DNA of 50,787 nt from an uncultured Opitutia bacterium. Its GTDB lineage: Bacteria > Verrucomicrobiota > Verrucomicrobiia > Opitutales > Opitutaceae. Where the stretch lies: contig CAIRCN010000046.1 in NCBI GenBank assembly GCA_903877135.1, positions 1 through 50,787 on the forward strand. Reading direction: 5' to 3'. The stretch's first letter is position 1. Each line of letters starts with the position of its first letter. Below, piece after piece: positions 28,118 to 50,787 of the stretch. Under the pieces are notes generated by a model. The model was not told the origin of the DNA. It did not search any database and saw nothing but the letters and a program-made list of their open reading frames with translations. The position numbers were made by a program, and so were the translations under genes.

Positions 28118-28152
28118 CGGGGCGGCTTCTAGGACTGGCAACCAAATCTTCA

Positions 28153-28179
28153 TTTCGCAAAATATAAACTCTTTTTCGC
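28153..28179. promoter_or_regulatory. Candidate AraC-type operator: direct repeats 21 bp apart
   Basis: TTTCGC occurs at 28153-28158 and again at 28174-28179, a 21-bp period or two helical turns, as expected for a dimeric AraC/XylR protein binding direct repeats. It lies between the XylR-like gene and the divergent dehydrogenase gene. If the regulator starts at 28153 rather than 28117, the first repeat abuts its start codon, which is one reason to prefer the shorter protein. Confidence 0.35.
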
Positions 28180-33069: not shown

Positions 33070-33723
33070 GTGAATTCCACCCCACCCGCTCCCGTTGATA
33101 CCGTCTCCCGGCGGCTGTGCGCGTTGTTCGCTTGGGGAAGCGTGCCGTGGGCCTTTCTGGGCCTGGTAGCCGTGGCGCTGGTGTTCCAATTGAATCCGGC
33201 CTGGCGCGGCGCGCTGATCTATGATCGCAGTTTGATTCAAGCCGGGGAAGTCTGGCGGCTCTGGACCGGGCATTTCATCCACTTTGGCTGGCCCCACTTC
33301 GTTGCCGACGCCGGACTTTTTCTCATCCTCGGGCGTCTGCTTGAGCGGAAGTATCCGACAGCCACGCGAACTGCCACCGTGCTCATGCCGCTTGTAATCT
33401 CCGGCGCGCTCTACTGGTGCGACCCGGAAATGGTCCGTTACGGGGGGCTGAGCGCGGTCAACCTCGGGCTGCTGCTCTTCTACGCCGCCCAGGGTTGGCA
33501 GCGCAACCGCTGGGACTGGTTCTGGCCAGGAATTCTCGCGATCTACATCGGTGAGGTGATTCTCGAAGCCACGCGCGGCCACGGCCACGGCGGCGGCATG
33601 ATCCCTTTCGATGACCCGACGGTGCACGTCGCTACCACTGCGCATATCGCCGGCGGGCTCTACGGGCTCGCGCTCTGGTCGTGGCTGCTGATTCGCAACC
33701 GGACGAAACCGAGCGCCGGTTGA
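33070..33723 (+). CDS. Rhombosortase-like rhomboid intramembrane serine protease
   Basis: Rhombosortases cut proteins at a C-terminal Gly-rich/transmembrane/basic sorting signal. The 217 residues form about six membrane helices. Visible motifs are WRLWTGHFIHFGWPHF at 62-77, close to the family's WRL.TGhf.H..W.H block, the serine in RYGGLSAVN (Ser128), and the histidine in TTAHIAGGLYG (His192), together the Ser-His dyad. The start is GTG at 33070; no ATG is available. It is 86 bp after kdgK and convergent with the GH28 gene. Two matching Gly-rich tails lie in the giant frame nearby. A general rhomboid is the alternative. Confidence 0.78.
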   Translation: MNSTPPAPVDTVSRRLCALFAWGSVPWAFLGLVAVALVFQLNPAWRGALIYDRSLIQAGEVWRLWTGHFIHFGWPHFVADAGLFLILGRLLERKYPTATRTATVLMPLVISGALYWCDPEMVRYGGLSAVNLGLLLFYAAQGWQRNRWDWFWPGILAIYIGEVILEATRGHGHGGGMIPFDDPTVHVATTAHIAGGLYGLALWSWLLIRNRTKPSAG

Positions 33724-35502: not shown

Positions 35503-38500
35503 CTACAAATCGAATGTAGTGGTGATGATAAACTGTCGCGGATCCACGATGCGGTAGGCGCTTGGGGTGCCGTCAGGGAAGGCGCGGATGGGTTTAATAC
35601 CACCGGACTCCTGAATGTTTTTCACGTTGAAACGGATTGTGGCGGAGACCTTGTCGAAGAACTTGATCCGGTAGCCGATGAACGCGTCAAAATAAAAGTG
35701 GCCGGAGTCATAGACAGGATTATTGGCATCTAGGCTCGTGATCGGCTGGTTCGCCGCCAGCAATTGCTGCCAGTTCTTGCCGAAGTAACCGATGGCGCCT
35801 TTGTCCTCCCAGCGCACGGCGCCGCCAACGCTGAAATTGCGCGCAACGTGATTATCGGTGACACCGGCGAGTTGAAGGTTGGTGCTGAGTTTGAAGCCAT
35901 AGCGGCGGACGGCAGGCTGCGACTTGCCCAGGGTTTCGCGAATGACGCTGTAAGGCGCATCAACAAAACTGAGGTAATTGGAAGCGGCGGTCTGCGAACC
36001 GCCATAAGTGGTGTTGGTCCACCAGAGGCGGTTCGGGTCGCCGGCCGGCAAACTGGCAAAGCGCGGATCTTGGATGGTGGTCCAGAGTGGCATGCGTTCG
36101 TCGATGTATTTCTGGATGGCGGGGGAAACGTTGGTGTTGATCGCCTGGGTGTCATTGGCGTTGCAGGCGATGGTCCAGAATTTCGTGGGGTTGTAATTGA
36201 TTTCGATTTCCGTGCCCCTGCCCGTGACGTCGTTGGTGGCGGCGAGTGTGCCGTTTTGATAATTGGTCACGAGGGCATTGTAGCGCGCAGGATCGAGCTT
36301 GATCTCGCTGAAGACCTCGGCCTGAACTTGGGCCGTGGTCCATGCCGGATTCATCGCGGTTACCCAGTTGGTTGCCTGGGTGTAAAGTTTGAAACCGTCA
36401 CTCTGTCCGCCGTCGATGTCGTGGCGCAGAACGCGCTGGGCAATGGTGTTCGCGTCGCCATCACGAGCATTGAACTGGGTGTTAGTGTATCGGTTGACGC
36501 GGATGACGAGTTTGCCGTCAAAGAGGTTCAGCCAGAAACCGTAGTCCTTGCCCTTGCCGGTGGTGTTGGGCAGCTGGTTCAGATATAGATCCACGGCAGG
36601 GGGCGCTGGGATGAAGTTGTCGGACTGGTTATAGGTGAAAGCCATGCCCCGCAGCACGTCGCCAAAAAATCCCTTCACGCCGGTATCGGATTGCATGCGG
36701 CTGACAAAGTCCATGTCGCGGAAAGCCCGGACGACCACACCCGCAGTCTGGGTGCGACCGCTGCTGACCCGCCAGTCAGGCTGCCAGTGATCGATGACGC
36801 TGTAATCAAATGCCGTGTTGTTATTCAGCATCTGCTGCGGCGTCTGGCCGTTTTTCGAATATACGAGGTCCTTGCGGACACCGAAGGTTGTCACGATGGA
36901 ATCGTTGAGGAAATGGCTCTGGATCACCGCCCCGGGGGTTTTGATGATCTGTTTCAGATTGGCGGTGCCGCCAGTGCTATCAGTGGTGGGAAGCTGGCCG
37001 AGGGTGATGGGGTCATAGTGCCAGTTGCCCGTGTTGCCCCAAACAAACGGATATGAACCATAACTGAAGGCCGCGGGCGCGTAATCCACGTTGGAGCCTT
37101 TGTTGTCGCCGACATAGTAGCGAAAGAAACCGCGCATGATGTTGGGCCCCGCCTGCGGACCGCCGATCACGTTGCTTTGATTGGCGCGCGCATAATTGGG
37201 CACAATCCCGCCCACCCCGACGGCTGACCACGCGGTGTCGGTGGTCATGACATCGCGATATGAATATTGGCGGTTGATGCGGTATTTGTAATCGCTGTAG
37301 ACGCTCATCTGATGCAGTCCGAGCCATTTGAGCCAGCCCTTCTCTTGCGTGAGATCGAGGCTGTAGGCGAGCTGCGCCCGGTAGGTGTCCCAGCGGGCCG
37401 GTTGCAGCATGGTGCGCGGTTCAAGGATACCAAGGTAGGGCCGGCCGAAATTAGGATTGGGCGTGCCATCGAGGTTACGTAGGTTGACATCTACAAAGAG
37501 CTGGCCTGTCTGGCCACTGACGCCGGAATTGCTCGCCGGGGTGCGCCGGTAGCGTTCGGCGTCCTCGCGGAAAATCGAGGCCATGCCGGCCAGGCGCTGA
37601 CGCGGAGTGTTGAAGAAGATCTGATCGAGTTGGACAAGATAGGTGTCGGTCTTGTCGCCGAACTGGTCGATGGAGGAGAGATTGATCTTCGACCAGTCGT
37701 ATAGTTCCTGACTGCTGACCGTGGGCGTAGTATTAAAGAGCGGCTGGCTGTCAAAGCGGCCCGGCACCGTCGAAGTGTAGAGCGTGGAGGAACTGGGGCC
37801 CATCAGGCGGACAGTGCCGGCGTTGGCGGCCGGGCTGTTGGCGGTATTGGCGGTCGGCGCGGTCCAGTAGGTGATGCCAGTCTGATCGATAAAGATGTTA
37901 CTGCGCTGGAAGGCTCCGCCGGCACGACTGAAGTAGCTGGGTAGGATAGTGTCGGGGATGGGAATCGTCGAGCCGGCCAGCAGACCCGTCGGGCTGCTGC
38001 TGGCATTCGCGCCGTAACTGACCCCGTTTAAGGTGATCAACTGTGTGACCGGATCCCAACCGGGACGGCCCGCACCAAGCCAGGCGGACACGTAGTCGCG
38101 GGGTGTGGTGTTGTTGGGGCGGTTGCCGACACCGTAATAACGAAGATAGCTGGCGCTGAGCGTGGTGTATTTGAACGGCCGGTATTTGATCATGGCGTCG
38201 AGGCGCTTAGTATTGAAGCCGGATGGTTTGCGCACGAAACCGTCGTGCTGGGTGGCGCCATTGACCCGGAATGCGAGTTTGTTTTTCAGGGCCACTTGGT
38301 TGAGATCGAAGGTCATGCGCCAGCCGTCGTAGCTATCGCCGCGCAACTGAGTCGTGTATTTGCTGCGCGAGAGGTTGGCCGAGATCGGCACCTGATTCAC
38401 AGTGCCGGACGGGTTGCCGAGACCAAAGACGTTGGCATTGGGGCCACGACTGACTTCGACTCCGTCGATGATGAGTGGATCGATGGGTGTGCGGCCCATC

Positions 38501-39012
38501 ATCTCAAAATTGCCGTAGGATATGTTCGCGGCAGCGATGCCACGGACACGATTGGCGCCGGTCGGATTGCCCTGGGAGTTGTCCGTGGCCTGACCGTTGC
38601 GGTCGATGGTCATGTCGGTGTAGGTGCCGGTGCCCTCGGTGTTGCCGGTATAGAGGAAGATGTCGTTGATATCGAGCATTGCGAAATCGGTCATCTGCTC
38701 CTTGGTGATCACACTGATCGATGAGGCAAGGTCCTCGATCTTGGTGTTGAGACGGGTGCCCGACATCGTGTTCGAGGAGAAATAGCCCTTGGTGTCAGAA
38801 ACGACTTCGAAGGGCGAGAGGGTGACGACTTCATCAGCCATGTTCGCTTCAGGACCAGTCTTGACCACTGCGGCTTTGGGTGGAGTGGCAGGTGCGACGG
38901 AACTAGGCGTTGGGGCCGGTTGCGCGAAGGAGAGCGACACGGCAAGGCTGGCCAAGCAGATGGGCAGCAGGATCAGTCTGCCCAGAGATTGAGAGGATGG
39001 TTGCGTCGTCAT
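35503..39012 (-). other. Module C of the giant frame: TonB-dependent receptor
   Basis: From the in-frame ATG at 39012 this is a complete outer-membrane receptor of about 1,169 residues. It has a signal peptide (MTTQPSSQSLGRLILLPICL..., cleavage near FAQ), a Pro-rich linker, the EVVTLSPFEVVSD entry motif, the plug (SGTRLNTKIEDLASSISVITKEQM, then IIDGVEVSRGPNANVFGLGNPSG) and a long barrel ending in FDL. It has no N-terminal regulatory domain, unlike the receptor at 22.9 kb, so ligands probably differ. If stop codons are restored at the junction, this is an ordinary third gene. Confidence 0.85.
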
Positions 39013-42000
39013 TGAGGTATTGGAAGTGCACGGAGTTTGGGCAGCACGGTGAGAAGCAATCCAACGGGCCAGGGCGACCAGACCAAGAGCGAGATAGAAC
39101 CACTCGCTGGGAGCGCCACCACCTCCACCGCCACTCGATACGCCACCGGTGGCAGGGGGCCCACTCACCGCCAGCGTGGCTTCATTGCTGGTCACGCTGC
39201 CTTGGGCATTGGTAGCCACCGCGGTGTATTTGCCGGCGTTAGCAGTCTGGACATTCGACAGAGTGAGAGTGTTGCTCGTGGCACCACTGATGGCCGCACC
39301 ATTGAAATTCCACTGGTAGGTGGGTGCCGGCTGGCCGGTGGCCGTCACAAAGAACTGCACAGTGGCCCCGGCCGTGACTGACTGGCTCTGGGGTTGAGTC
39401 TGAATGACCGGCGCGTTGGGGAACACGCCCTGTCGAAGGATGTGATTGGTGCTATCGGCAATATAAAACTCCCCAGTCAAGGCCTGGGTGATGCCCGACG
39501 GATAGTTGAACCGCGCTGTGGCTCCAGCGCCATCGGCACTGCCAGCAGTGCCCGCCAGCCCCGCCACGGTGGTGACCACACCGGCGGCAGAAGTGATCTT
39601 GCGGATGGTGTGGTTGTTGGTGTCGAGCACGTAGACGTTGTAGGCGCTGTCAACCACCAGTGCGGTCGGTTGATTAAACCGAGCCGCACTCCCGGTGCCA
39701 TCAGCAGCACCGATGCTTCCCGCCAATCCTGCGAGGGTCTTGACAGCACCAGTTGAGCTGATCGAGCGGATGGCGTTGTTGTCGGTGTCGGCGACGTAGA
39801 TGTTGCCATTCTTGTCCACCGCCACATCCGAGGGGCCATTAAACCTCGCGGCACTGCCTGTGCCATCAATGTTACCCGACTGACCAGCGAGTCCAGCGAG
39901 CGTGCTCACCGTGTTGGTCAGGAGATCAATCTTGCGGATGGTATTGTTGTTGGAGTCGGCCACATAGAGGCGACTGCCCGTCGCATCGAAGGCGATACCT
40001 TGCGGTCCGAAGAACCGGGCGGCGGTTCCGACACCATCGGCACTGCCGGAAGCGCCGGCCTGACCCGCGATGGTTGTGACGGCACCAGCAATAGTGATCT
40101 TACGAATCGTGTGATTCAGAGTGTCGGCAACGTAGAGGTTGCCGGCGCTGTCGATCGTGATCCCAGAGGGAGCGTTGAATCTTGCCGCCGCTCCGGTGCC
40201 ATTCGTCGTGCCGGAGCTGCCAGCTGTGCCCGCAAAGGTCGTGACCACACCACCCGCCGCGACGAGGCGGATGGTATTGTTGTTGGTGTCGGCGACATAG
40301 ACGTTGCCAGCGCTGTCGACCGCGACGGCCAAGGGATAATTGAAGCGCGCCGCACTGCCAGTGGCATCAGTGCTGCCTCGCGTAAGCGCCAGGCCTGCGA
40401 TCGTGGAAATCGTCATTGGCGTGGCAACGGCGGGAGCTGTCTGAACCGTGAGTGTGAAGGGCTGTGTTGCATTTGGAGCCGCCCCATTTTGCGCCGTAAT
40501 CATCAGCAGGAACTGTCCGCCAGCTGTCCCCGTGGGTGCCGTGCCGGTGAGCACACCGGAGTTTGGATCCAGTGTGGCCCACGACGGCAAGCCTGTGGCG
40601 GTGTAGGTGGGCGCGGGAATACCTGTCGCCGTCACGGTGAACGTCGACACCAAGCCAAGGGTGAAGGTGGTGCCGTTTGCGCTCGTGATCACGGGGGCCA
40701 CGGTCAGCTGAGACGTCGTCACCGAGATCGTGGCAGAATTGGGGCTCGGCCCGACGTCGTTGTAGGCGCGCACCCGGTAGTAATAATTCGTCGTCTGGCT
40801 CAAACCGGCAATGTTCCGGCTCAGCGTGTTGCCAACATCAAGGCCCTGATAGCCGCTGAGAAAACTGCCGAAGGCGCTGTCGGTCGACAGGTCGAGGAGA
40901 TAACCGGTGGTTTTCGCCGTGGCGCTCCAACTGGCAGTGAAGTGCGCGCTGGTGATGTTGGTGGCGGCGTTGGCCACAGGAGCAAGCGGAGGCGCCGGCA
41001 CCGGGCTGACGAGCAAGTTGGCGCTGGTCGATGTCGCCGTGCCCGCGGGATTGCTCACACTCACAGTGTAAGTGCCGGAATCCGCCACAAGCACACCGGT
41101 GAGCGTCAGCGTCGCTGTCGCGGAGCCAGAAACTTCATTGCCGTCAGTCATAGCTGAGCCGCCCTTCATCCATTGGTAAATCAACGGCGTAGTGCCGGTG
41201 GCGGTGATTGAATAGGTAATGGTGGTGCCTTCAAAGACGGCTTGGTTGCTGATGGGCTGAGTGGTGATAGCTGGCGGCACGATCACGGACAGAGTGGCCA
41301 CGGCGCTGGTGGTAGTCCCGCCGTCGTTGACGATGACGACCGTATAATCGGCGGCGTCACTCGTCTGGGCACCAGTGATCGTGAGCGTGGCGGTGGTGCT
41401 GCCAGAGATGCGCCCGCCATCGGTAAGCGCGGTGCCACCTTTGCTCCATTGATAATATAGCGGAGTGGAGCTGGTCACGACGACGCTCAGTGTCGCCGTG
41501 TTGCCTAGGTTGACCGGCTGAGTGGCCGGCTGTGTCGTGATCGCCGGAGCCGTGCCGACGCCATTCACCGTGAGAGCGGCGGCGCTACTGGTGGCGGAAA
41601 CGGGCAGGCTGCCCGCCGCAATGGCACTGGTGGTGGTGTTATAGCCGTCGAGCGAATTGGAAACGGTGCAGGTGTAACTGCCGGCATTGGCGCTGCGGGC
41701 GGCGGTGAGCGTGAGCGTGGCAGTTGTGGCACCGGAAATCACTGAGCCATTCGGCATCGTCCCATTGGTCACCGCCGTGCCGTTCAGCTTCCACTGATAA
41801 GTGGGCGCGGTGCTGCTGACGCCACTGGCTCCCGCTGTGGTGACGGCGAAGCTGACCTTGTCGCCTGGATTTACTGTAACGCTCTGCGGCTGACTGGTGA
41901 TCGCGAGGGCGTTGGCGGTGGTGAGCGTGCCGACACTGGTGGTGCCGGTAAACTGGACGCCGGTGGCGTTATAGATTTCGAGGCCCGAGCCGCCGGAGAT

Positions 42001-45000
42001 TGAGACGTTGTTAAGCGTGACGTTGGAGATCAGCGCACTGGCCAGCGGGAGGCCCCAGATAGTGCTGTAGCCGGTCGCACCGGTCGCGGTGAGATTGCTG
42101 ATCGTGATGTTCTTCCAAATCGAGAGGGTGGAAGAGCTCAATGAATCGGGCGGCGTGGCATTCCATGCATTGACTTTGGCGGGCGTGATCTGGTTGCTGC
42201 CCGAGGTTGCGCCCGGTGTGCCAACGTCGTTGTAATAGCTGTAGAAGACGATTGGGTATGCGACGTTCGTCATCGTGAGCGTGGAATAGGTCAGATTCTG
42301 CACGGTGCCGCCCTGAGTGGCGTCTGCCTTGAGACGGATGCCACTGGTGGTGCCGGTGAAGGTGCAGTTGGTGACCGTCAGGCCGTCGAGGCCGAGATTG
42401 GTCTGCCCGCCGACAGAGACGCCGTGGCCGACGCCAAAGGTGCAACCGGAGACAGTCATGTTACCGCAGTTGCCGTTCTGGGCCTTGATGGCGATGTTGT
42501 CGTCGCCGACCGCGATGGTGCAGCTTTGCACAAGCACGTTGACAGCGGTCGGGTCGAAGCCGTCGGTGTTGGGCGAAGTGGACGGAGCGGTGATGGTGAG
42601 GCCGTAGGCGGTGACATTGGTGTTTGGCGTGCCGCCGCTGCCACTCATCGCGATGTGGAACTGGGGCGAATTTTGCAGGGTGACGCCGCCAAGGTAGACG
42701 TTGGTGGCCTTCGTAAACTGGATCAGGCGCGGGCGATTACTGATGGTATTGTTGTTGTAAGCATTCCACCAAGCCGTGCCGTCGCCCTCGATCGTGCCGG
42801 TGCCGGTGACGGCGACGTTGGTAGCACTGCTCGCAAAGGTGATGAAGTTAGCGGGCGAGGTGGCGCTGTTCGGATAGGTGCCGTAGGGGAGCGCGCGGAG
42901 GGTCGCGCCGCCGTCGATCTGGAGGTTCAGGTTGCTGCCGAGCGTGAGCGGACCCGAGAGATAGGAGCCGGTCGCGGCCGGAATCTCGACGGTGCCACCG
43001 CCAGCAGTCTGTGCAGCGCTGATCGCGGTTTGGATCGCGGTGGTGTTGTCCGTCGTGCCGTCACCCACCGCACCGTAATCAGTGATTTTGAAAACGCCGG
43101 CAGGAATCGTCGGCTGAGTGGGCAGCGTGACAGCCGGCGCAACCAAGGTGAGCGTGGCGGCAGAACTGGTGGTCGGGCCGGTCACATTGGACACGGTGAC
43201 AGTGTAGCTGGCGGCGTCGGCGGCCGCGAGGCCAACGAGCTGGAGAGACTGGCCCGTGGCGCCGGTAATCGCAGTTCCGGCTTTGTTCCATTGGTAAGTG
43301 AACGGACCGACACCAGTGGCGAGCACGCTGAAGCTGACTTGCGTGCCGGTCAGAGCAGACTGGCTCTGGGGCTGAACGGTGATTGTGGGAACCGGGATCG
43401 TGACAGTGAGGGTGGCGGTCGAACTCGTTACGGTGCCGACGGAATTGGTGACCTTCACCTTGTAAACGGCGCTGTTGTCGGCGACCTGCACGGAGTTGAG
43501 CGTGTAGGAAGCAGAGGTGGCACCGGTAATGTCGGCGTTGTTGCGCTGCCACTGGTAGCTGAGCGTGGTCGAGCTGGTGGCCGCAACGGTGAAGGTGGCA
43601 TTGCCGCCATATGTCACAGTAAGGTTGGCTGGCTGAGTGGTGATGACCGGAGGTGCCGCCGGAGTGGTCGCGGTGATCACATTGGAAGAAGGGCTGGCAC
43701 CACCGACATTGACCGCACGCGCGCGGTAATAATACGAAGTGTTATCAGTAAGGCCGTTCACGGTGGCGGATAAATTGGCGCCGACGTCGAGATCCTGATA
43801 GCCGGTGGCAAAGCTGCCGAACGTGTTGCTGGTCGATACATCAAGCCGGTAGCCGGTGGCACCGGTCACGCTGCCCCAGTTTGCGGTGAAACCGCCCGCT
43901 GTGACGCTACTGGCTGCTGTCGCAGTCGGAGCCGCTGGTGGCGGTGTAACCGCCTGAACGGTCAACGTGGCAGTGGAGCTGGTGACGTTGCCGCCGATAT
44001 TGGAAACGACAACTTGGTAATCGCCGGCATCAGACGCCTGCACACTGGTGAGCGCGAGCGAGGCCGAGGTGGCACCCGAAATGTCGGCAAATGAGCCGCC
44101 GACGGGTTTCTTCTGCCATTGATAAGACAATGGCGTGGTGCCACTCGCCGCCGCAGTGAAGGTGGCATTGTTGCCCACGGTTACAGTCTGCGTAGACGGC
44201 TGAGCCGTCATCGCCGGGGCAGTCACGGGAGTATTTTTAACAATATTGAGATCCTTCACCGCCACTGCCGCACCTGTGGCGGAATAGATCATCAACGAAT
44301 CAAAACTTGTGATCAAGGTGCCGGTCGTCTGACTGACCGAGTAGGACATCAACGTCGTGCTGCCGTTCTTCACGGAATAGGAGAGATTGACCTGCGTCGC
44401 GGAGACATAGGTGATCGAAAGATTAAGCGTATAGACGGTGATGCCGTCATTCACCATCGCCGCAGCCGTGCCGCCACCTGTGCTGCCAATCTGACCAAAG
44501 GTCGCGGAGGGAACGATGGTCGTGAGGTCGGCGGTATTAGGACCCAGGATTTGGGTGCTTCCGCCGGTGGCCGAGGCACTGCCTGTCCGTTGCCAGAAAG
44601 AGAGCGTGTTGTTGGAGGATGAACCCCACGCGTTGGTATCGACGATGTAGCCCGAGTAAGCGCGGGCAGTATTGCCTGTCGGAGTCCCAGTCAGGCTGTT
44701 TGAGGTGCCCGGAGCGTAGCGTGCCGAAATCGCCGTATTGTTAGTCGCCGCACCGTTGCCGCCGCTATTCAATAATCCAAGTCGGAAATTGCCCGCGGTG
44801 GCCGTCTGCGTGCCGCCCGTCAGTGTCATTTGCACCGTCGCTGAAAGTGTCTCACCCACCGCCAGTGACGTGTAGTAGGGCGAGACAGTAGAAGGCATGA
44901 AATAGGTGATGAGTCCCCGGTTGGTCCCCGCGCTCACTCCGAGCGATGTGTTTTGAGTGTAGGCAATCGTGCCAGTGCCAAACGAGGCCCAAACCGCCTG

Positions 45001-48000
45001 AGTGCTGGTCGGCGCTAGAAAACCGTTGGTGTCCGTCGTCAGGCCGGCATGCAACGTCGCGGCCGACATTGCATCGTGGACGACCGATGCAGATTGCACC
45101 GCGGAAGGTGTCGTCACGGTAATGGCGTTGGAAGAAGCACTGGCACCGGCACCATTATAGGCCCGCACCTGGTAATAATAAGTCGTGCTGCTAGTCAGAC
45201 CGGTCACACTGGCAGATAGATTCGAGCCTGCGTCGAGATTCTGATAGCCGCTGACAAAACTGCCAAACGCAGGGTCGGTCGACACGTCGAGCCGGTAGCC
45301 CGTGGCTCCGGTCACGCTGCCCCAGTTCGCCTTGAAGCCGCTGATCATATCATAGGTGGCCGCCGTGGCAGCAGGGCTCACCGGGGGAGTCACAACCGTG
45401 AGTGTCGCAGTAGAACTGGTGGTTGAGCCACCGCCGTTAGTGACTATGACTTGGTAATCACCCGCATCGGATGCTTGCACGCTGGGGAGCGTAAGCGAAG
45501 CCGAAGTCGCACCGGAGATGTTGGCAAACGAACCGCTGACGGGTTTCACCTGCCACTGGTAGGTCAGAGTGCCGCCACCAGTCGCAGCCGAAGTAAGGGT
45601 AACGACTGTGCCAGCGTTGGCTGACTGAGTGGTCGGCTGGGTGGTGATCGTCGGCGCAGCTAGGGCGTTCGTATAGGTCACCTTGAATTGAGTCGTGTCG
45701 AACGAAGTCGCTGCGAGCGTTGTGGAACTGGGCCTGATATCATATGTATCAAATGTGAATCCATTTGGCGTCGTATCGACAAAAGAGACCGTGGCTGTGC
45801 CTGTGCCGTTGAGGTTGCCACCGGCCATCGTAACGGTGACGTCCATAGATGACGGCGTGGTCGCATCACGGGTGAGCGTCATGGTGAACGTGTAGGTGGT
45901 GCCGGACGCATATCCCACATTGCCCGACGTAGCCCCGTTTGCCAGGGCGGTCCAGTTTCCCGATGTCCCCAGTAGCGCACCTGCGGTCGACCCGAGGCCC
46001 CACCGCCGCAACTGAAACGGATTGGCGTTCCCCAGCGTTGCACCCATGTTCATAAACATGGAGTAACCGGCGTAAACTGCCGTCGGCAGGCTCGTATCTG
46101 TTGACACGCGCGTCGCGGCAGGCGATTGAGCCACGGCGATTAAAAAGCCCTGACTGGTGTTGCTGGCATTGACGCCACTTGGCGTGAAAACCCAAGTCAC
46201 CGTCATGCTATCGCCAGGATTTGTCAGGGTGACCGGTGTCGCCGCCGGGGTGAAATAAGTATAAAAGGACTGCGAGCTGGATCCTAGCGTCGCGACCAAA
46301 TGCCCGGTGGTCGCAACCAGCGTTGAGCCAGTGCCTACATTGAACCACGCCGATTCCAAATTCCCATCACTGTCAATATCCGTGCCGACGACGCCGTTAT
46401 TCTCGGCGTAAACCGGCGCCGCCGGATCAGTGCGCGTGCCATCCTGCCACGTATCATTCACGAGGGTATTGGTCAATGCGGCCTGAAGGCCAGATGTGCC
46501 GCAGAACAGCGCGACAACGACGACGAAATTCAGGAGAGCGGACTTGCTCATGGAGAAACGGGCCGGGCCGGGCCGCCGGGTGAGCCAGCGCGCTGCAACG
46601 AGGAGAACGAGTGCGAAGTAGAACCAGCCACCCGGGGCACCGCCGCCGCCGCTGGGCAATCCGACGGCGGACGCGTAGGTGGAGTTGACGACCAAACCGG
46701 CGCGGTTGCTCGTCACGCTGCCGAGCGCATTGGTGGCGGTCACAGTGTAATCGCCGGCATTCGCCGCGGAGACTGCCGAGAGGCTCAGCGTATTACTGGT
46801 GGCACCGACGATCTGAGAGCCGTTGAGCGACCACTGGTAGGTGGGCGCCGGACGGCCAGTGGCCTGCACCGTAAACTGCGCGCTGCCACCGGTCGCAACC
46901 GACTGGCTTTGGGGTTGGGTGGTTATGACCGGAGCATTGGGCAGGCCACCGAGGCGCAGGGTGCTGTTGTTGGTATCGGCAATGAAAAGATCGCCCGCCG
47001 AGTTTACAGCGATGCCGGTCGGATAATTGAAGCGGGCGACGGAGCCAATGCCATCCGTGCTACCCGTAGTGCCGGGCAAGCCAGCGATGGTGGAGACCAC
47101 GCCTGCCGCCGACACGATCTTGCGGATGGCATGATTGTCCGTGTCGACCACATAAACATTGAACAAGCCGTCGACGTCGAGTGCCGACGGTTGATTGAAT
47201 CTAGCGGCGCTGCCGACACCATCAGCCGCACCGGTGCTGCCCACCAATCCGGCAAGAGTGGTGACCACGCCGGCAGAAGTAATTGAGCGAATGGTGCCGT
47301 TGTCCGTGTCGGCCACGTAAAGATTGCCGTTCTTATCCACCGCGACATCGGAGGGAGCAAAGAATCGGGCGGCGCTGCCTGTGCCGTCGGCGCTCCCGGG
47401 CTGGCGGGCGAGACCCGCCAATGTGCTCACCGTCGCGGAGGAGATGACGATCTTGCGGATGGTGTTGTTATTGGTGTCGGCGAGATAGAGATTGGCCCCG
47501 GTGGCGTCGAGGGAGAGACCCTGCGGCCAGAAGAAACGGGCCACGTTGCCCACGCCATCGGCGCTGCCGGTCGCGCCGGCAGAACCAGCGAGCGTGGTGA
47601 CAACACCAGCAGATGTGACTTTGCGGATCGTGTGGTTGAGGGTGTCGGCGACATAGACGTTACCCGCGCTGTCCACGGCAATGCCCGAGGGAGAGTTAAA
47701 CGTCGCCGCCGTGCCCGTGCCGTCCAGACTGCCTGATATGCCGGACTTGCCGGCCAAGGTCGTGACCACACCGGCGGCAGTCACCTTTCTAATGGTATGG
47801 TTGCCGGTATCGGCCACATAGGCATTACCGGAGCTGTCAGCCGCGACGGCGGCGAGATGATTGAACCGCGCTGAGGTGCCGGTGGCATCAGTGCTGCCAA
47901 CCGTGCCAGCCAAACCGGCGACGGTGCTGATCGTCAGCGGCTCGCTGACGCTGGGGACCGCATTCAGGACGAGCGAGAAAGCCTGCGATGCATCGGGAGC

Positions 48001-50262
48001 TTTGTCGTTTTTGGCTGCGAGCGTGATGGCAATCTGGGTGCCCGCGGTGCCGGCGGGTGGCGTGCCGCTCAGCACACCACTTACTGCATCCAATGCGGCC
48101 CAAGTCGGCAGGCCCGTGGCGCTGAATGTCGGCGGCGGCGCCCCCGTGGCCGTGGCCGTGAAACTGCCCGCGACACCAACAGTGAAAACGGTAGTATTGG
48201 CACTGGTGATGATCGGCGCCACGGGTGTCTGCACCCGCAGGGCGATGACATTGGAGTTTCCACTGGTGCCGGTGCTGTTGTAGGCGCGCACCCGGTAGTA
48301 ATAATTGGTGTCGATCGCCAAGCCCCATACATTCGTGCTCAGAGTGGAGCCGACATCCAAATTCGTATAGCCGGTCACAAAATTGCTGAACGCGGCATCC
48401 GTAGCGACATCAAGCTGGTAGCCGGTGGCGTTGGCCGACCGGGTCCACAGGGCTGTAAAACCGTTCTCGTTGATGTTACGTGCGCTCAGCGCCGCCGGAG
48501 CGAGCGGTGTCGGCGCTGCGTTGACGGTCAGGACCGCTGTCGCCGAGGTGATAGTCGCAGCGAAATTTCCCACCGAGAGGGTGTAGTTGCCGGCATCGGT
48601 CAGCCGCGCACTGGGCAGACTGAGCGTGCCCGTGGTGCTGCCGGTGATCCGGCCATCATCAGCGAGATTCACCCCGTTCTTCATCCACTGGTAGACGAAC
48701 GGTGACGGTCCGCTCACCGTGGCAGTGAGTGTGACATCCGCACCTTCATAAACGGTCTGGCTCGACGGTTGGGCGACAAACGCCGGCGGCGTGGACGGAT
48801 AGATCGTAAGCGTAGCAGAGTTGCTGGTGACAGTGCCATAACTGTTGGTGATCACCACCGTGTAGACGCCTGCGTCGCTGAGTTGACTGGTCGTGATCAC
48901 GAGTGAAGCGGTCGCGGTGCCGGAGAATTCGCCGGTATCGGTCAGCGCAACTCCGTCTTTCTTCCATTGGTAGACCATCGTTGGTGCGCCTCTTGCCACC
49001 ACACTCAGGGTAACGCTTTGTTTTTCGAAGATGGTCTTGTCCACCGGTTGAGTAGTGATCTCTGGCACGGTCAATACGGTCAGAGTCGCCACCGAGCTCG
49101 TGACGCTTCCGACGGCGTTGGTCGCAATGACAGTATAATTGCCCGCATCGGCCAGTTGCACGCTGGTGAGCGTCAGTGTGGCGGCGGTCGCGCCGGAAAT
49201 TGCCACGCCGCCTTTCAGCCATTGATAGGCGGGCGCAGGCGCACCGGATGCAGCAGCGGTAAAGGTAACGTCGGTGCCGGCCGCTGCCACCTGCGAGGTG
49301 GGTTGCGTCGTAATCGTTGGCGCAACTGAGGTCTTGGTGACCAGGAAATCCGTCACGGCCAGCGCTGCGTTGTAGGTGGTCAGAATCATGAACGTATCGA
49401 AGCCAACGTAGGGCAAAGTGGAGGTCTCCGTTAGCGAATATGACATCACCGTCGTGGCACCGTTTTGCACAGTGTAGGACAGCGTCATGTTGGTGGCCGA
49501 AACTGCTGTCACCGACAACGTGGCGACATAGATCGTGCCGTCGTTAGTGATGGCACCTACGGCACCACCACCGTAACCGGGCAGGAGCTGGCTGAGGGTG
49601 GTGTTGGCGGCGACATCGCTCGAAGTCGGCCCGAGCCACTGCTGGCTCTTGCCTTGGCCACCATCACGCCGCCAAAACGACAGCGAATTGGTTGATGCGG
49701 TCGGCGACGCCGTGGTGTCGACCAAGTATCCGGAATATCCGCGCGGAGTGTTGCCACCTGCCGTCAGGCTAAAATTATCGGCAATGAGGCGGGCGCCCGG
49801 AAGCGGTTCTCCTGAGGGGCGTGGGCTAGCACTGGCACCATCGTTCGTCGGACCGCCGTTGCCGCCGCTGTTGAGGAACCCCATGCGAAAATCGCCAGAA
49901 CTCGATGCACCCGTGCCACCGGCAAACTTGAACGTCACCGTCGCGGTGAGGGTCTCCCCTACGGCCAGGGAGGCCAAGGTGGTAGAGGGTTCGAAATAGG
50001 CCAGCAGGCCGCGATTGCCTGCAGCCAAACCGATGGACGTGTTAGACGTATACGTAACAGCAGCTCCACCGCCAAACCAGACCGCTTGCGTGCCGGTCGG
50101 TGCGCGATAGCTGTTGGCGTCGAGCGCGAGACCGGTGTTCACGGCTGTCGCCGAGAACGTGTCGTGGAGGATCGTCGTAGTCACATTCGCGGCCGGAAGC
50201 GGGGAGACGCCGCGGAGCAACGCGAAAGTGAAAACGAGGTTAAGCAGCTTGGATTTGCTCAT
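35503..50262 (-). CDS. Giant open frame: two secreted Ig/NHL modules (one with GH28) plus a TonB-dependent receptor, without internal stops
   Basis: One frame of about 4,919 codons runs from the ATG at 50262 to the TAG at 35503; it remains open upstream to 50397, but the signal peptide (MSKSKLLN...) begins at 50262. It holds three successive units, each starting with a signal peptide: A (50262-46552), B (46551-39013) and C (39012-35503). A and B each end in a Gly-rich, hydrophobic, basic tail. Read as one protein it would cross the inner membrane repeatedly and need cutting at the two tails and three signal peptides. Read as an operon it lacks two stop codons: at both junctions the internal start reads ATGA, so one base gained or lost would create an overlapping stop like those elsewhere in this locus. 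No Shine-Dalgarno precedes any of the three ATGs. Confidence 0.75.
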   Translation of the reverse strand: MSKSKLLNLVFTFALLRGVSPLPAANVTTTILHDTFSATAVNTGLALDANSYRAPTGTQAVWFGGGAAVTYTSNTSIGLAAGNRGLLAYFEPSTTLASLAVGETLTATVTFKFAGGTGASSSGDFRMGFLNSGGNGGPTNDGASASPRPSGEPLPGARLIADNFSLTAGGNTPRGYSGYLVDTTASPTASTNSLSFWRRDGGQGKSQQWLGPTSSDVAANTTLSQLLPGYGGGAVGAITNDGTIYVATLSVTAVSATNMTLSYTVQNGATTVMSYSLTETSTLPYVGFDTFMILTTYNAALAVTDFLVTKTSVAPTITTQPTSQVAAAGTDVTFTAAASGAPAPAYQWLKGGVAISGATAATLTLTSVQLADAGNYTVIATNAVGSVTSSVATLTVLTVPEITTQPVDKTIFEKQSVTLSVVARGAPTMVYQWKKDGVALTDTGEFSGTATASLVITTSQLSDAGVYTVVITNSYGTVTSNSATLTIYPSTPPAFVAQPSSQTVYEGADVTLTATVSGPSPFVYQWMKNGVNLADDGRITGSTTGTLSLPSARLTDAGNYTLSVGNFAATITSATAVLTVNAAPTPLAPAALSARNINENGFTALWTRSANATGYQLDVATDAAFSNFVTGYTNLDVGSTLSTNVWGLAIDTNYYYRVRAYNSTGTSGNSNVIALRVQTPVAPIITSANTTVFTVGVAGSFTATATGAPPPTFSATGLPTWAALDAVSGVLSGTPPAGTAGTQIAITLAAKNDKAPDASQAFSLVLNAVPSVSEPLTISTVAGLAGTVGSTDATGTSARFNHLAAVAADSSGNAYVADTGNHTIRKVTAAGVVTTLAGKSGISGSLDGTGTAATFNSPSGIAVDSAGNVYVADTLNHTIRKVTSAGVVTTLAGSAGATGSADGVGNVARFFWPQGLSLDATGANLYLADTNNNTIRKIVISSATVSTLAGLARQPGSADGTGSAARFFAPSDVAVDKNGNLYVADTDNGTIRSITSAGVVTTLAGLVGSTGAADGVGSAARFNQPSALDVDGLFNVYVVDTDNHAIRKIVSAAGVVSTIAGLPGTTGSTDGIGSVARFNYPTGIAVNSAGDLFIADTNNSTLRLGGLPNAPVITTQPQSQSVATGGSAQFTVQATGRPAPTYQWSLNGSQIVGATSNTLSLSAVSAANAGDYTVTATNALGSVTSNRAGLVVNSTYASAVGLPSGGGGAPGGWFYFALVLLVAARWLTRRPGPARFSMSKSALLNFVVVVALFCGTSGLQAALTNTLVNDTWQDGTRTDPAAPVYAENNGVVGTDIDSDGNLESAWFNVGTGSTLVATTGHLVATLGSSSQSFYTYFTPAATPVTLTNPGDSMTVTWVFTPSGVNASNTSQGFLIAVAQSPAATRVSTDTSLPTAVYAGYSMFMNMGATLGNANPFQLRRWGLGSTAGALLGTSGNWTALANGATSGNVGYASGTTYTFTMTLTRDATTPSSMDVTVTMAGGNLNGTGTATVSFVDTTPNGFTFDTYDIRPSSTTLAATSFDTTQFKVTYTNALAAPTITTQPTTQSANAGTVVTLTSAATGGGTLTYQWQVKPVSGSFANISGATSASLTLPSVQASDAGDYQVIVTNGGGSTTSSTATLTVVTPPVSPAATAATYDMISGFKANWGSVTGATGYRLDVSTDPAFGSFVSGYQNLDAGSNLSASVTGLTSSTTYYYQVRAYNGAGASASSNAITVTTPSAVQSASVVHDAMSAATLHAGLTTDTNGFLAPTSTQAVWASFGTGTIAYTQNTSLGVSAGTNRGLITYFMPSTVSPYYTSLAVGETLSATVQMTLTGGTQTATAGNFRLGLLNSGGNGAATNNTAISARYAPGTSNSLTGTPTGNTARAYSGYIVDTNAWGSSSNNTLSFWQRTGSASATGGSTQILGPNTADLTTIVPSATFGQIGSTGGGTAAAMVNDGITVYTLNLSITYVSATQVNLSYSVKNGSTTLMSYSVSQTTGTLITSFDSLMIYSATGAAVAVKDLNIVKNTPVTAPAMTAQPSTQTVTVGNNATFTAAASGTTPLSYQWQKKPVGGSFADISGATSASLALTSVQASDAGDYQVVVSNIGGNVTSSTATLTVQAVTPPPAAPTATAASSVTAGGFTANWGSVTGATGYRLDVSTSNTFGSFATGYQDLDVGANLSATVNGLTDNTSYYYRARAVNVGGASPSSNVITATTPAAPPVITTQPANLTVTYGGNATFTVAATSSTTLSYQWQRNNADITGATSASYTLNSVQVADNSAVYKVKVTNSVGTVTSSTATLTVTIPVPTITVQPQSQSALTGTQVSFSVLATGVGPFTYQWNKAGTAITGATGQSLQLVGLAAADAASYTVTVSNVTGPTTSSAATLTLVAPAVTLPTQPTIPAGVFKITDYGAVGDGTTDNTTAIQTAISAAQTAGGGTVEIPAATGSYLSGPLTLGSNLNLQIDGGATLRALPYGTYPNSATSPANFITFASSATNVAVTGTGTIEGDGTAWWNAYNNNTISNRPRLIQFTKATNVYLGGVTLQNSPQFHIAMSGSGGTPNTNVTAYGLTITAPSTSPNTDGFDPTAVNVLVQSCTIAVGDDNIAIKAQNGNCGNMTVSGCTFGVGHGVSVGGQTNLGLDGLTVTNCTFTGTTSGIRLKADATQGGTVQNLTYSTLTMTNVAYPIVFYSYYNDVGTPGATSGSNQITPAKVNAWNATPPDSLSSSTLSIWKNITISNLTATGATGYSTIWGLPLASALISNVTLNNVSISGGSGLEIYNATGVQFTGTTSVGTLTTANALAITSQPQSVTVNPGDKVSFAVTTAGASGVSSTAPTYQWKLNGTAVTNGTMPNGSVISGATTATLTLTAARSANAGSYTCTVSNSLDGYNTTTSAIAAGSLPVSATSSAAALTVNGVGTAPAITTQPATQPVNLGNTATLSVVVTSSTPLYYQWSKGGTALTDGGRISGSTTATLTITGAQTSDAADYTVVIVNDGGTTTSAVATLSVIVPPAITTQPISNQAVFEGTTITYSITATGTTPLIYQWMKGGSAMTDGNEVSGSATATLTLTGVLVADSGTYTVSVSNPAGTATSTSANLLVSPVPAPPLAPVANAATNITSAHFTASWSATAKTTGYLLDLSTDSAFGSFLSGYQGLDVGNTLSRNIAGLSQTTNYYYRVRAYNDVGPSPNSATISVTTSQLTVAPVITSANGTTFTLGLVSTFTVTATGIPAPTYTATGLPSWATLDPNSGVLTGTAPTGTAGGQFLLMITAQNGAAPNATQPFTLTVQTAPAVATPMTISTIAGLALTRGSTDATGSAARFNYPLAVAVDSAGNVYVADTNNNTIRLVAAGGVVTTFAGTAGSSGTTNGTGAAARFNAPSGITIDSAGNLYVADTLNHTIRKITIAGAVTTIAGQAGASGSADGVGTAARFFGPQGIAFDATGSRLYVADSNNNTIRKIDLLTNTVSTLAGLAGQSGNIDGTGSAARFNGPSDVAVDKNGNIYVADTDNNAIRSISSTGAVKTLAGLAGSIGAADGTGSAARFNQPTALVVDSAYNVYVLDTNNHTIRKITSAAGVVTTVAGLAGTAGSADGAGATARFNYPSGITQALTGEFYIADSTNHILRQGVFPNAPVIQTQPQSQSVTAGATVQFFVTATGQPAPTYQWNFNGAAISGATSNTLTLSNVQTANAGKYTAVATNAQGSVTSNEATLAVSGPPATGGVSSGGGGGGAPSEWFYLALGLVALARWIASHRAAQTPCTSNTSMTTQPSSQSLGRLILLPICLASLAVSLSFAQPAPTPSSVAPATPPKAAVVKTGPEANMADEVVTLSPFEVVSDTKGYFSSNTMSGTRLNTKIEDLASSISVITKEQMTDFAMLDINDIFLYTGNTEGTGTYTDMTIDRNGQATDNSQGNPTGANRVRGIAAANISYGNFEMMGRTPIDPLIIDGVEVSRGPNANVFGLGNPSGTVNQVPISANLSRSKYTTQLRGDSYDGWRMTFDLNQVALKNKLAFRVNGATQHDGFVRKPSGFNTKRLDAMIKYRPFKYTTLSASYLRYYGVGNRPNNTTPRDYVSAWLGAGRPGWDPVTQLITLNGVSYGANASSSPTGLLAGSTIPIPDTILPSYFSRAGGAFQRSNIFIDQTGITYWTAPTANTANSPAANAGTVRLMGPSSSTLYTSTVPGRFDSQPLFNTTPTVSSQELYDWSKINLSSIDQFGDKTDTYLVQLDQIFFNTPRQRLAGMASIFREDAERYRRTPASNSGVSGQTGQLFVDVNLRNLDGTPNPNFGRPYLGILEPRTMLQPARWDTYRAQLAYSLDLTQEKGWLKWLGLHQMSVYSDYKYRINRQYSYRDVMTTDTAWSAVGVGGIVPNYARANQSNVIGGPQAGPNIMRGFFRYYVGDNKGSNVDYAPAAFSYGSYPFVWGNTGNWHYDPITLGQLPTTDSTGGTANLKQIIKTPGAVIQSHFLNDSIVTTFGVRKDLVYSKNGQTPQQMLNNNTAFDYSVIDHWQPDWRVSSGRTQTAGVVVRAFRDMDFVSRMQSDTGVKGFFGDVLRGMAFTYNQSDNFIPAPPAVDLYLNQLPNTTGKGKDYGFWLNLFDGKLVIRVNRYTNTQFNARDGDANTIAQRVLRHDIDGGQSDGFKLYTQATNWVTAMNPAWTTAQVQAEVFSEIKLDPARYNALVTNYQNGTLAATNDVTGRGTEIEINYNPTKFWTIACNANDTQAINTNVSPAIQKYIDERMPLWTTIQDPRFASLPAGDPNRLWWTNTTYGGSQTAASNYLSFVDAPYSVIRETLGKSQPAVRRYGFKLSTNLQLAGVTDNHVARNFSVGGAVRWEDKGAIGYFGKNWQQLLAANQPITSLDANNPVYDSGHFYFDAFIGYRIKFFDKVSATIRFNVKNIQESGGIKPIRAFPDGTPSAYRIVDPRQFIITTTFDL
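39013..46551 (-). other. Module B of the giant frame: multi-Ig, Fn3, GH28 and NHL secreted protein with sorting tail
   Basis: About 2,513 residues from the in-frame ATG at 46551 (MSKSALLN signal peptide). In order: a beta-rich N-terminal domain of about 270 residues with no recognised family; Ig and Fn3; a second beta-rich domain related to the N-terminus of module A; Ig, Fn3, Ig, Ig; a GH28 beta-helix (about 43,098-41,900, with NTDG, GDD, GHG and RLK); three Ig domains; Fn3; a He_PIG-like domain; six NHL repeats (about 40,430-39,430); Ig; then SSGGGGGGAPSEW, a membrane helix and ARWIASHR. It is a probable surface-displayed polygalacturonase on a long stalk. Confidence 0.8.
39070..41275 (-). 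repeat. Long repeat, copy in module B (Ig-Fn3-PIG-NHL6-Ig-tail)
   Basis: These roughly 2.2 kb encode the same domain order as 46,580-48,785, with the same length and closely similar protein sequence over about 735 residues, sorting tail included. Boundaries are approximate and were judged from protein similarity. Confidence 0.7.
46552..50262 (-). other. Module A of the giant frame: Ig, Fn3 and NHL secreted protein with sorting tail
   Basis: About 1,237 residues. After the signal peptide (to about residue 25, SPLPAA) come a beta-rich domain of about 290 residues with no recognised family, three Ig domains, Fn3, a He_PIG-like domain, six NHL repeats (about 47,945-46,950, each with a VYVADTxNHTIRK-type core), one Ig domain, then PSGGGGAPGGW, a membrane helix and ARWLTRR. 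There is no catalytic domain, so it is likely a binding or scaffold partner of module B, whose C-terminal third it closely resembles. Confidence 0.8.
46580..48785 (-). repeat. Long repeat, copy in module A (Ig-Fn3-PIG-NHL6-Ig-tail)
   Basis: This is the partner of the repeat at 39,070-41,275. Equal length and unbroken domain order point to duplication of a whole gene end rather than independent assembly. The copies are direct repeats about 7.5 kb apart, so recombination between them could delete or fuse modules. Confidence 0.7.
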
Positions 50263-50787
50263 GATAGGTTGGGCTCTGAAGGGGCAGTTACCGCGAATAT
50301 TTGCGACCCGCGGGTCAAATGAAGGCCTGAATTGATCGTGTGGTTTCGACCGGATGGGGTTGACGAACGAGGGTAGGAACGCCGGATCGGGGCACATGGC
50401 GGAGCGGGAAACCAGCCTATTTCTCGGAGGGAAAACAGGATGTCTGCAGCGATTGGGATAAGAGTTGGCGGAGGGTAGGACAATTTCTCATCCCCGGATC
50501 GAATTGAGCCGGGGAGCGGGGGAAGGCACAGGCAAGGATCAATATGAGCGAAGGAGCACGTCTCGTCGTTCACAAGAGGCTCAACGCGCACATCGTTGAC
50601 TAAAAATCGGGAAAACTCGCCTGCTGACCCTGTGCGCTATCTTTTTATGGGGTATGCAGTTGACTGACACTGCCGAAGGTTGCGGGGCAATTGTCGTAGT
50701 TTCATATCCCATGCGAGCAATAGGCCATCCTTAGCGCACGCAACTCTCAAGACCGCACAACCCTCCACGAACCCCCGCGATCCGGGC
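50263..50787. other. Region upstream of the giant frame, no supported gene
   Basis: The frame of module A stays open to 50,397 but without secretory character. The remaining 390 bp contain only short frames on both strands. The promoter of the giant frame should lie here, reading leftwards, but I see no convincing -35/-10 pair or operator. The sequence from about 50,600 is AT-richer than the genes. The window ends before the next gene. Confidence 0.5.

What the first reader, a model, noticed from the sequence alone, without database searches (positions are those of the whole stretch)
35503..50262. Three signal-peptide proteins in one unbroken frame: candidate self-threading polyprotein
Seen: about 4,919 codons without a stop, containing internal signal peptides at 46,551 and 39,012, each directly preceded by a Gly-rich/transmembrane/basic tail. 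Inference: the topology would work. Each tail acts as a stop-transfer helix and the next signal peptide restarts export. Signal peptidase and rhombosortase could then cut one chain into a scaffold (A), an enzyme (B) and an outer-membrane receptor (C) in fixed ratio. I know of no described bacterial polyprotein of this form. Alternative: a three-gene operon fused by small indels, because the internal starts read ATGA and a one-base shift creates overlapping stops of the kind used elsewhere in this locus.
Basis: partly seen in the sequence, partly recalled or inferred. Interest (0 to 1): 0.85.

Follow-up and report, generated by a model that had tools for sequence, protein, structure and literature searches.

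The report
Self-cutting bacterial surface polyprotein family
One bacterial gene encodes several exported proteins joined end to end, each joint being a surface-anchor tail run straight into the next protein's export signal, and the same kind of joint recurs in related bacteria, which suggests these bacteria make surface machinery as one long chain that membrane enzymes then cut apart.

Summary
The frame is real: 4,964 codons (35503-50397, minus strand) hold three exported units: A (Ig/fn3/NHL), B (Ig/GH28/NHL), C (TonB-dependent receptor). Each joint is a Gly-rich tail, helix and basic cluster running in frame into a signal peptide. The A/B joint is natural: unbroken also in the other genome held of this genus and in a single-contig genome of a second genus. 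B/C is fused only here: both relatives have a stop, and the linker differs by one base from G001. It is a recent fusion or an assembly error. The architecture recurs. Of 180 tails in stretches I fetched (chosen partly for long frames), 20 credible ones (9 genomes, 4 genera) are internal; 19 run in frame into a signal peptide, 13 of them of a TonB receptor. Two of 17 joints lack any in-frame ATG, GTG or TTG. NCBI's GlyGly-CTERM model passes its cut-off on some relatives' tails, internal ones included, but not on the window's. A rhombosortase gene lies 1.8 kb away. Best explanation: polyproteins of exported proteins, threaded by a helix hairpin, cut by rhombosortase and signal peptidase I. Cutting is inferred, not shown.

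The parts
35503..50397 (-). single open frame encoding A-B-C (4964 aa from ATG 50397; 4919 aa from Met 50262)
46552..50262 (-). unit A: signal peptide, Ig/I-set, fn3, He_PIG, NHL repeats (region also matches the SGL and teneurin NHL propeller models), Ig, then Gly-rich tail
   Evidence: Pfam
46552..46650 (-). internal tail of A: GGGGAPGGWFYFALVLLVAARWLTRRPGPARFS (Gly motif, helix, basic cluster)
46480..46551 (-). internal signal peptide of B (MSKSALLNFVVVVALFCGTSGLQA; cleavage point by eye)
39013..46551 (-). unit B: signal peptide, Ig/fn3 repeats, GH28 domain, NHL, Ig, tail; C-terminal part paralogous to A (57% over A 317-1227 / B 1551-2498)
39013..39132 (-). internal tail of B (GGGGGGAPSEWFYLALGLVALARWIASHRAAQ...)
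38923..39012 (-). internal signal peptide of C (MTTQPSSQSLGRLILLPICLASLAVSLSFA; cleavage point by eye)
35503..39012 (-). unit C: TonB-dependent receptor (Plug 25.2 bits, cut-off 23.9; Pfam barrel models not detected)
33070..33723 (+). rhombosortase (TIGR03902, 109.1 bits, cut-off 84), candidate enzyme for the tails
33743..35386 (-). neighbouring GH28 gene with a weak Ig match, same strand, just downstream of the polyprotein frame

Best explanation
The frame encodes a natural polyprotein of exported proteins, one of a recurrent family in this group of Opitutaceae-type bacteria. Shown from sequence: a rhombosortase/GlyGly-CTERM-type tail (Gly motif, helix, basic cluster), in most copies the C-terminus of a protein, is here joined in frame to the signal peptide of the next exported protein, most often a TonB-dependent receptor. 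Inferred: during export the tail helix stops transfer, the basic linker stays in the cytoplasm, and the following signal peptide re-enters the Sec channel, forming a two-helix hairpin. Rhombosortase cuts at the glycines and releases (probably lipid-anchors) the upstream protein; signal peptidase I cuts after the second helix and releases the next one; the hairpin is discarded. The products are made in fixed ratio from one initiation. In this window A/B is a conserved fusion. B/C is a fusion seen only here, with a linker one base longer than in G001.
For: A/B joint unbroken in G000, G001 (4220-aa frame, open at the contig end) and G104 (single-contig genome, 3961-aa frame) with diverged linkers and a different B N-terminus in G001. 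Survey of fetched stretches: 180 distinct tails at E<=1, 159 terminal, 21 internal, 1 of these spurious; 18 of 21 pass a signal-peptide heuristic of mine against 20 of 2000 random windows; L184 has one further on (by eye). Two loci outside those that built the junction profile (G221:C1:3518813, G222:C95) match it end to end without a stop, beside the six that built it. 9 of 9 downstream parts scanned are TonB receptors. 2 of 17 joints have no in-frame ATG/GTG/TTG. Linker net charge +3 to +10 in the 20 credible cases. Two standalone receptors have their signal peptide where the internal one lies. Rhombosortase over cut-off in the window and in 12 of 12 tail genomes tested, 5 of 8 without the tail; beside tail genes in G049, G132, G149, G159. 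TIGR03501 (GlyGly-CTERM) over cut-off in 7 of 10 genomes, at places that include two internal tails (L172, L184).
Against: No protein evidence: cutting, order and stoichiometry are inferred. Fetched stretches favoured long frames, so 20 of 180 is not a rate. Six of the 11 rows of the tail profile are the A and B tails of G000, G001 and G104, which match it by construction. The heuristic's thresholds were set after seeing the joints. TIGR03501 does not hit the window's, G001's or G104's tails, and it passes its cut-off in 1 of 14 control genomes. 15 of 17 joints do have an in-frame ATG, GTG or TTG in the stretch examined. Rhombosortase occurs in 5 of 8 genomes without this tail. L245 has lost signal peptide and frame, and L165 seems to leave frame after its tail. 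B/C is separate in both relatives. The AlphaFold model of the A/B joint has low confidence (mean pLDDT 54).
Confidence: 0.66

Rival explanations
1. Artefact: separate genes fused by assembly indels.
For: Both joints show the ATGA pattern in the +1 frame; for B/C both relatives have a stop, and the stretch from the conserved TGG to the ATG is 51 bases here, 50 in G001 and 47 in G104, so only here is it a multiple of three; the window is a contig of a draft genome of 87 contigs.
Against: A/B is unbroken in three genomes, one a single contig, with diverged sequence; joints of the same kind recur in the single- and two-contig genomes G083 and G221. For B/C alone the artefact stays possible (my estimate 0.35-0.4).
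Confidence: 0.05
2. True fusions, but the chain stays uncut: the hairpin holds the upstream protein and the receptor together in the inner membrane, or the joint acts as a tether.
For: No cleavage data; a helix pair with a basic loop is a stable topology (linkers).
Against: A receptor held in the inner membrane could not reach the outer membrane (general knowledge); a small-residue site follows the second helix in the 18 joints that pass the heuristic; a rhombosortase gene lies in the locus.
Confidence: 0.13
3. Fusions are near-neutral accidents of tightly packed gene pairs: the downstream protein is made mainly by internal initiation at its old start codon, and the fused chain is waste.
For: Terminal tails are followed closely by a same-strand frame with a signal-like N-terminus in 42 of 156 cases; both joints in the window keep an ATG; 15 of 17 joints examined have some in-frame ATG, GTG or TTG; Shine-Dalgarno motifs are rare at ORF starts in this window (1 of 20), so their absence at the joints does not exclude internal starts.
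Against: 2 of 17 joints have no in-frame ATG/GTG/TTG (rarer start codons not examined); homologous fusions are shared between genera; L184 stays in frame across a long linker; the joint is under amino-acid constraint (pS 0.62, pN 0.29 against G104).
Confidence: 0.16

Closest known systems
GlyGly-CTERM / rhombosortase system (Haft and Varghese 2011, PMC3237569, passages seen; Vibrio VesB work 2018, PMC6219818, passages seen; 2026, PMC13393428, abstract and outline seen)
   Same: Gly-rich motif, helix, basic cluster; rhombosortase gene in the genome; the curated GlyGly-CTERM model passes its cut-off on tails of several relatives, two internal ones included; Haft and Varghese list Opitutus terrae with one such protein beside its rhombosortase.
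   Different: There the signal is at the C-terminus; here it is internal and continues into a signal peptide and a second exported protein. The window's own tails are not hit by the model. Haft and Varghese found tail and rhombosortase side by side only in genomes with a single tail; here they are neighbours also in genomes with several.
Bradyrhizobium FbcH cytochrome b/c1 polyprotein (recalled; not in the listings)
   Same: Bacterial polyprotein separated at an internal signal peptide by signal peptidase.
   Different: There two subunits of one inner-membrane complex; here surface proteins and outer-membrane receptors, joined through a sorting tail, in several gene pairs.
Polyproteins of enveloped RNA viruses (recalled, as a topological comparison only)
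   Same: Stop-transfer helix followed by an internal signal sequence, cut by signal peptidase.
   Different: Eukaryotic ER, unrelated proteins, no rhombosortase.
SusC/SusD-type gene pairs (recalled)
   Same: A TonB receptor made together with a surface glycan-handling partner.
   Different: Separate genes, lipoprotein partner; no sequence relation tested here.

Membership tests
GlyGly-CTERM proteins | Gly-rich motif + transmembrane helix + basic cluster | tested here: met
GlyGly-CTERM proteins | located at the C-terminus | tested here: not met
   both window tails are internal; of 172 surveyed tails at E<=0.01, 153 are terminal and 19 internal
GlyGly-CTERM proteins | curated model TIGR03501 over cut-off (window tails) | tested here: not met
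   window, G001 and G104 tails not hit
GlyGly-CTERM proteins | curated model TIGR03501 over cut-off (tails of relatives) | tested here: met
   7 of 10 genomes over cut-off, many at places found by my tail profile, including internal tails L172 (18.7 bits, cut-off 15.5) and L184 (16 with its neighbours); internal tail L175 just below (15.2); 1 of 14 controls over cut-off
GlyGly-CTERM proteins | cognate rhombosortase in the genome | tested here: met
   window 33070-33723 (+), 109.1 bits, cut-off 84; 12 of 12 tail genomes tested
GlyGly-CTERM proteins | cleavage at the Gly motif and lipid modification | not testable with these tools
   needs protein
Rhombosortase (window 33070-33723) | TIGR03902 over curated cut-off | tested here: met
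   all 14 control genomes give some match, none over cut-off
Bacterial polyprotein with internal signal peptide | one uninterrupted frame with two exported proteins and an internal signal peptide | tested here: met
Bacterial polyprotein with internal signal peptide | separate mature products from one precursor | not testable with these tools
   needs proteomics
TonB-dependent receptor (unit C) | Plug domain | tested here: met
   PF07715 25.2 bits, cut-off 23.9
TonB-dependent receptor (unit C) | beta-barrel domain | tested here: inconclusive
   PF00593 not detected in C; 160 of 252 family genomes have a homologue of C at E<=1e-30

The most novel reading that the evidence does not exclude
A bacterial family uses a general polyprotein design for its surface machinery: a rhombosortase tail and a signal peptide merge into a removable two-helix hairpin, cut by two different membrane proteases, so that one initiation yields a surface-anchored glycan-handling protein and its outer-membrane receptor (in this window two surface proteins plus a receptor) in fixed ratio. 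The design has arisen several times from neighbouring gene pairs and is kept by selection.
Probability: 0.55. Interest if true: 0.87.

Novelty: new variant of a known kind. Interest (0 to 1): 0.77.

Why it matters
Bacteria are generally taken to balance subunits by operons and translation rates, not by cutting long chains. Here a sorting signal defined by its place at the C-terminus is found inside frames, repeatedly, most of them 2,800 to 5,000 codons long. If the chains are cut, these bacteria possess a multi-part exported polyprotein system with rhombosortase as a maturation protease, and such frames are easily mislabelled as giant receptors or adhesins. It is directly testable in culturable relatives and, with reporters, in E. 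coli K-12.

Tried and rejected
Rejected: (1) Artefact for A/B: unbroken in three genomes. (2) A single freak locus: the tail survey and junction profile found others. (3) The G065 receptor frame of 1783 aa as another fusion: by eye the upstream part is non-coding open frame before a normal Met and signal peptide. (4) L265 (E 0.59, 85-aa frame): spurious tail. (5) L245: the tail's frame runs on for 208 aa, but by eye the signal peptide is lost and the receptor lies in another frame; counted as a broken copy. (6) Missing Shine-Dalgarno motifs at the joints as evidence against internal starts: uninformative, since 1 of 20 other ORF starts in the window has one, and those starts are mechanical ORF starts, some probably not the true ones. 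(7) dN/dS: synonymous sites are near saturation (pS about 0.6-0.7), so it shows only amino-acid constraint. (8) AlphaFold of the A/B joint, from three sequences: two helices, low confidence. (9) A scan for pairs of hydrophobic stretches stopped part-way and also missed the window's own joints, so its silence elsewhere means little. (10) Tail at class level: 16 of 384 genomes at E<=1e-5, the 16 all in this family. (11) Paper searches on rhombosortase, bacterial polyproteins, FbcH, internal signal peptides and rhombosortase with polyprotein: no listed paper describes this arrangement; the library is open-access only and, apart from three papers, I saw listings only. Not done: a tree of the fusion events; the groups in the report rest on BLAST similarity and are rough.

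Full report
What is there. The minus strand carries one open frame, 35503..50397, of 4964 codons with a single stop at the end. It holds three exported units. A (46552-50262) has Ig, fn3, He_PIG and NHL domains; B (39013-46551) has eight Ig_3 stretches, fn3, a GH28 domain and NHL; C (35503-39012) has a TonB plug. A and B are paralogues: A 317-1227 matches B 1551-2498 at 57%. Each internal boundary reads Gly-rich motif, hydrophobic helix, basic cluster, then in frame a signal peptide. The surroundings look like a pectin and galacturonate locus: GH28, GH43, GH88-GH28, pectinesterase-GDSL, UxaC, UxaE-like, MFS and PfkB-type genes.

Is it an artefact? For A/B, no. The window's genus has one other genome held, G001; its contig has the length of record JAFEGO010000084.1, MAG isolate SZAS-20. 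There A and B form one 4220-aa frame, open at the 5' end of the contig; the tail GGGGGGAPSDFFWLALALLGAARWLSRR leads into RFLSLAVLLGLALLPVAAHAQ, a quite different signal peptide with a different first domain. In G104, a single-contig genome of another genus, A and B form one 3961-aa frame with tail GGGGGAPGWWFYFALVVAAAARWLSRRRERRFSF and then MRHSTLFIFAAVLVLAGSAATLRAQ. In a family search (252 genomes; capped candidates and a capped list) these three are the ones listed whose match spans the whole joint. Amino-acid constraint runs through tail, linker and signal peptide (pS 0.62, pN 0.29 against G104; 0.64 and 0.29 against G001), though synonymous sites are near saturation.

For B/C the answer is open. 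In G001 the B frame ends in TGA two bases before the ATG of C. In G104 the stop of B overlaps the ATG of C (ATGA). From the conserved TGG to the ATG the window has 51 bases, G001 50 and G104 47, so only in the window is it a multiple of three. Of 252 family genomes searched, 160 have a match to C at E<=1e-30; among the listed matches only the window's frame is this long, and the next longest, in G065, is not a fusion. So B/C is either a natural small-indel fusion in this lineage or an assembly error. I put the fusion at about 0.6.

Is it unique? No, and this is the main result. I built a profile of the tail from 11 segments, six of them the A and B tails of G000, G001 and G104, and searched 252 family genomes; 68 have a match at E<=0.001. 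A class-wide draw of 384 genomes had one at E<=1e-5 in 16, all 16 in this family. I fetched stretches around many tails, not all, favouring long frames, and counted distinct tails. At E<=0.01 there were 172: 153 terminal (stop within 40 residues) and 19 internal. At E<=1 there were 180: 159 and 21. Of the 21, L265 is spurious and L245 has lost its signal peptide and frame (by eye). The other 19 run in frame into a signal peptide: 18 pass a heuristic of mine (hydrophobic core, preceding basic residue, small-residue site; thresholds set after seeing the joints) that 20 of 2000 random windows of the same frames pass, and in L184 the signal peptide follows a long linker (by eye). The 20 credible internal tails lie in nine genomes: G000 (2), G001, G104, G083 (3), G084 (2), G085 (2), G086 (2), G221 (6) and G222, in genera g1, g22, g18 and g46. 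G085's contig has the length of a record of an Ereboglobus MAG, so g18 is probably Ereboglobus (inference). Because of how stretches were chosen, 20 of 180 is not a rate.

What follows the tails. Of the 19, 13 lead into a TonB-dependent receptor: C in the window, nine by Pfam with plug and barrel (9 of 9 scanned; seven of them with a carboxypeptidase-regulatory domain) and three (L202, L243, L244) by BLAST similarity to those. The other six are of the A-B kind (G000, G001, G104, L165, L201, L184). Four upstream parts scanned all have Ig and NHL domains; three have He_PIG, two PATR repeats and one a pectate-lyase match. A junction profile built from six receptor loci matches eight loci end to end with no stop, in G083, G084 (two), G085, G086, G221 (two) and G222; six of these eight built the profile, so two are new (few candidates scored per genome). 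By BLAST the fusions fall into about seven groups: A/B; B/C; L165/L201/L184; the eight-locus group; L172/L175; L205; L188 (rough). So the architecture has probably arisen more than once, and several groups are shared between genera.

Could the second protein start by itself? At 2 of 17 joints examined (L205, L175) there is no in-frame ATG, GTG or TTG between the tail helix and the signal peptide core; the other 15 have at least one in the stretch examined, and rarer start codons were not looked at. The window's two joints keep an ATG without a Shine-Dalgarno motif, but only 1 of 20 other ORF starts in the window has such a motif, so that says little. Two standalone relatives of the receptors have their N-terminal signal peptide at the place of the internal one (L258, L229). 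Terminal tails are followed within -30 to +200 bases by a same-strand frame of 200 aa or more with a signal-like N-terminus in 42 of 156 cases, an obvious source for fusions; seven of those neighbours look like rhombosortases by eye.

Mechanism. The tail has the build of the GlyGly-CTERM signal, which rhombosortase cuts to expose a glycine that is then joined to a glycerophosphoethanolamine-containing moiety in Vibrio (PMC6219818, passages). NCBI's model of that signal, TIGR03501, passes its cut-off in 7 of 10 genomes that I tested, at many of the places my profile found, including the internal tails L172 and L184; L175 is just below. It does not hit the tails of the window, G001 or G104, and it passes in 1 of 14 control genomes. 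A rhombosortase gene over the curated cut-off lies in the window at 33070-33723 (+) (109.1 bits against 84). In 20 genomes tested it is over cut-off in 17: 12 of 12 with the tail and 5 of 8 without a listed tail; all 14 control genomes give some match and none is over cut-off. Tail and rhombosortase genes are neighbours in G049, G132, G149 and G159. Haft and Varghese saw such neighbours in genomes with one tail, Opitutus terrae among them, but not in those with several (PMC3237569, passages); in this they differ from my four. Linkers between the helices carry net charge +3 to +10 in the 20 credible cases, as a cytoplasmic loop should. The most likely course is: first signal peptide exports A; the tail helix stops transfer; the next signal peptide restarts it; rhombosortase cuts at the glycines; signal peptidase I cuts after the second helix. 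The cutting steps are inferred. A model of the A/B joint has two helices (residues 108-124 and 136-164) but low confidence.

Against this reading. The window's own tails miss the GlyGly-CTERM model. Rhombosortase is not confined to tail genomes. Some copies are decayed (L245; L165 seems to leave frame about 668 aa after its tail). There is no protein evidence. An uncut tethered chain, or fusions that are tolerated while downstream proteins come from internal starts, are not excluded.

Comparison and novelty. The parts are known: rhombosortase tails, signal peptides, TonB receptors. The arrangement, a sorting tail inside a frame that hands over to the next signal peptide, appeared in none of the listings of searches of an open-access library. 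The nearest bacterial precedent, FbcH, is recalled and was not in those listings as such. I therefore file it as a new variant of a known kind.

Noticed in passing
window 954-33723: Much of the rest of the window is a pectin/galacturonate utilisation locus: GH28, GH43, GH88-GH28 fusion, pectinesterase-GDSL fusion, UxaC, UxaE-like, MFS, DUF4861, TonB receptor, regulator, 2-hydroxyacid dehydrogenase, gnd, Ldh_2 and PfkB-type genes.
   Followed up: partly
window 26954-28153 (-): Regulator with a LacI-type periplasmic-binding-like sensor and an AraC-type DNA-binding domain.
   Followed up: no
L087 (G001:C117, about 110751): An open frame of 8554 aa in the related genome matches the start of unit B (signal peptide and first domain; E 1e-36).
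   Followed up: no
L088 (G000:C26): An open frame of 4558 aa with Ig-like repeats in the window's own genome.
   Followed up: no
L184 (G221), after the internal tail: Linker of about 100 residues that looks like an inserted repeat element (by eye), yet the frame stays open into a signal peptide.
   Followed up: partly
L245 (G221:C1, about 1588986): Decayed member of the eight-locus group: signal peptide lost and receptor in another frame.
   Followed up: partly
tails of G000, G001, G104: Their GGGG-AP-x-F/W tail variant escapes the curated GlyGly-CTERM model, while tails of other family genomes pass it: probably a lineage form of the rhombosortase signal.
   Followed up: partly
G221 and G083: Unusually many rhombosortase-type tails per genome: 42 and 29 matches at E<=0.01.
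   Followed up: partly
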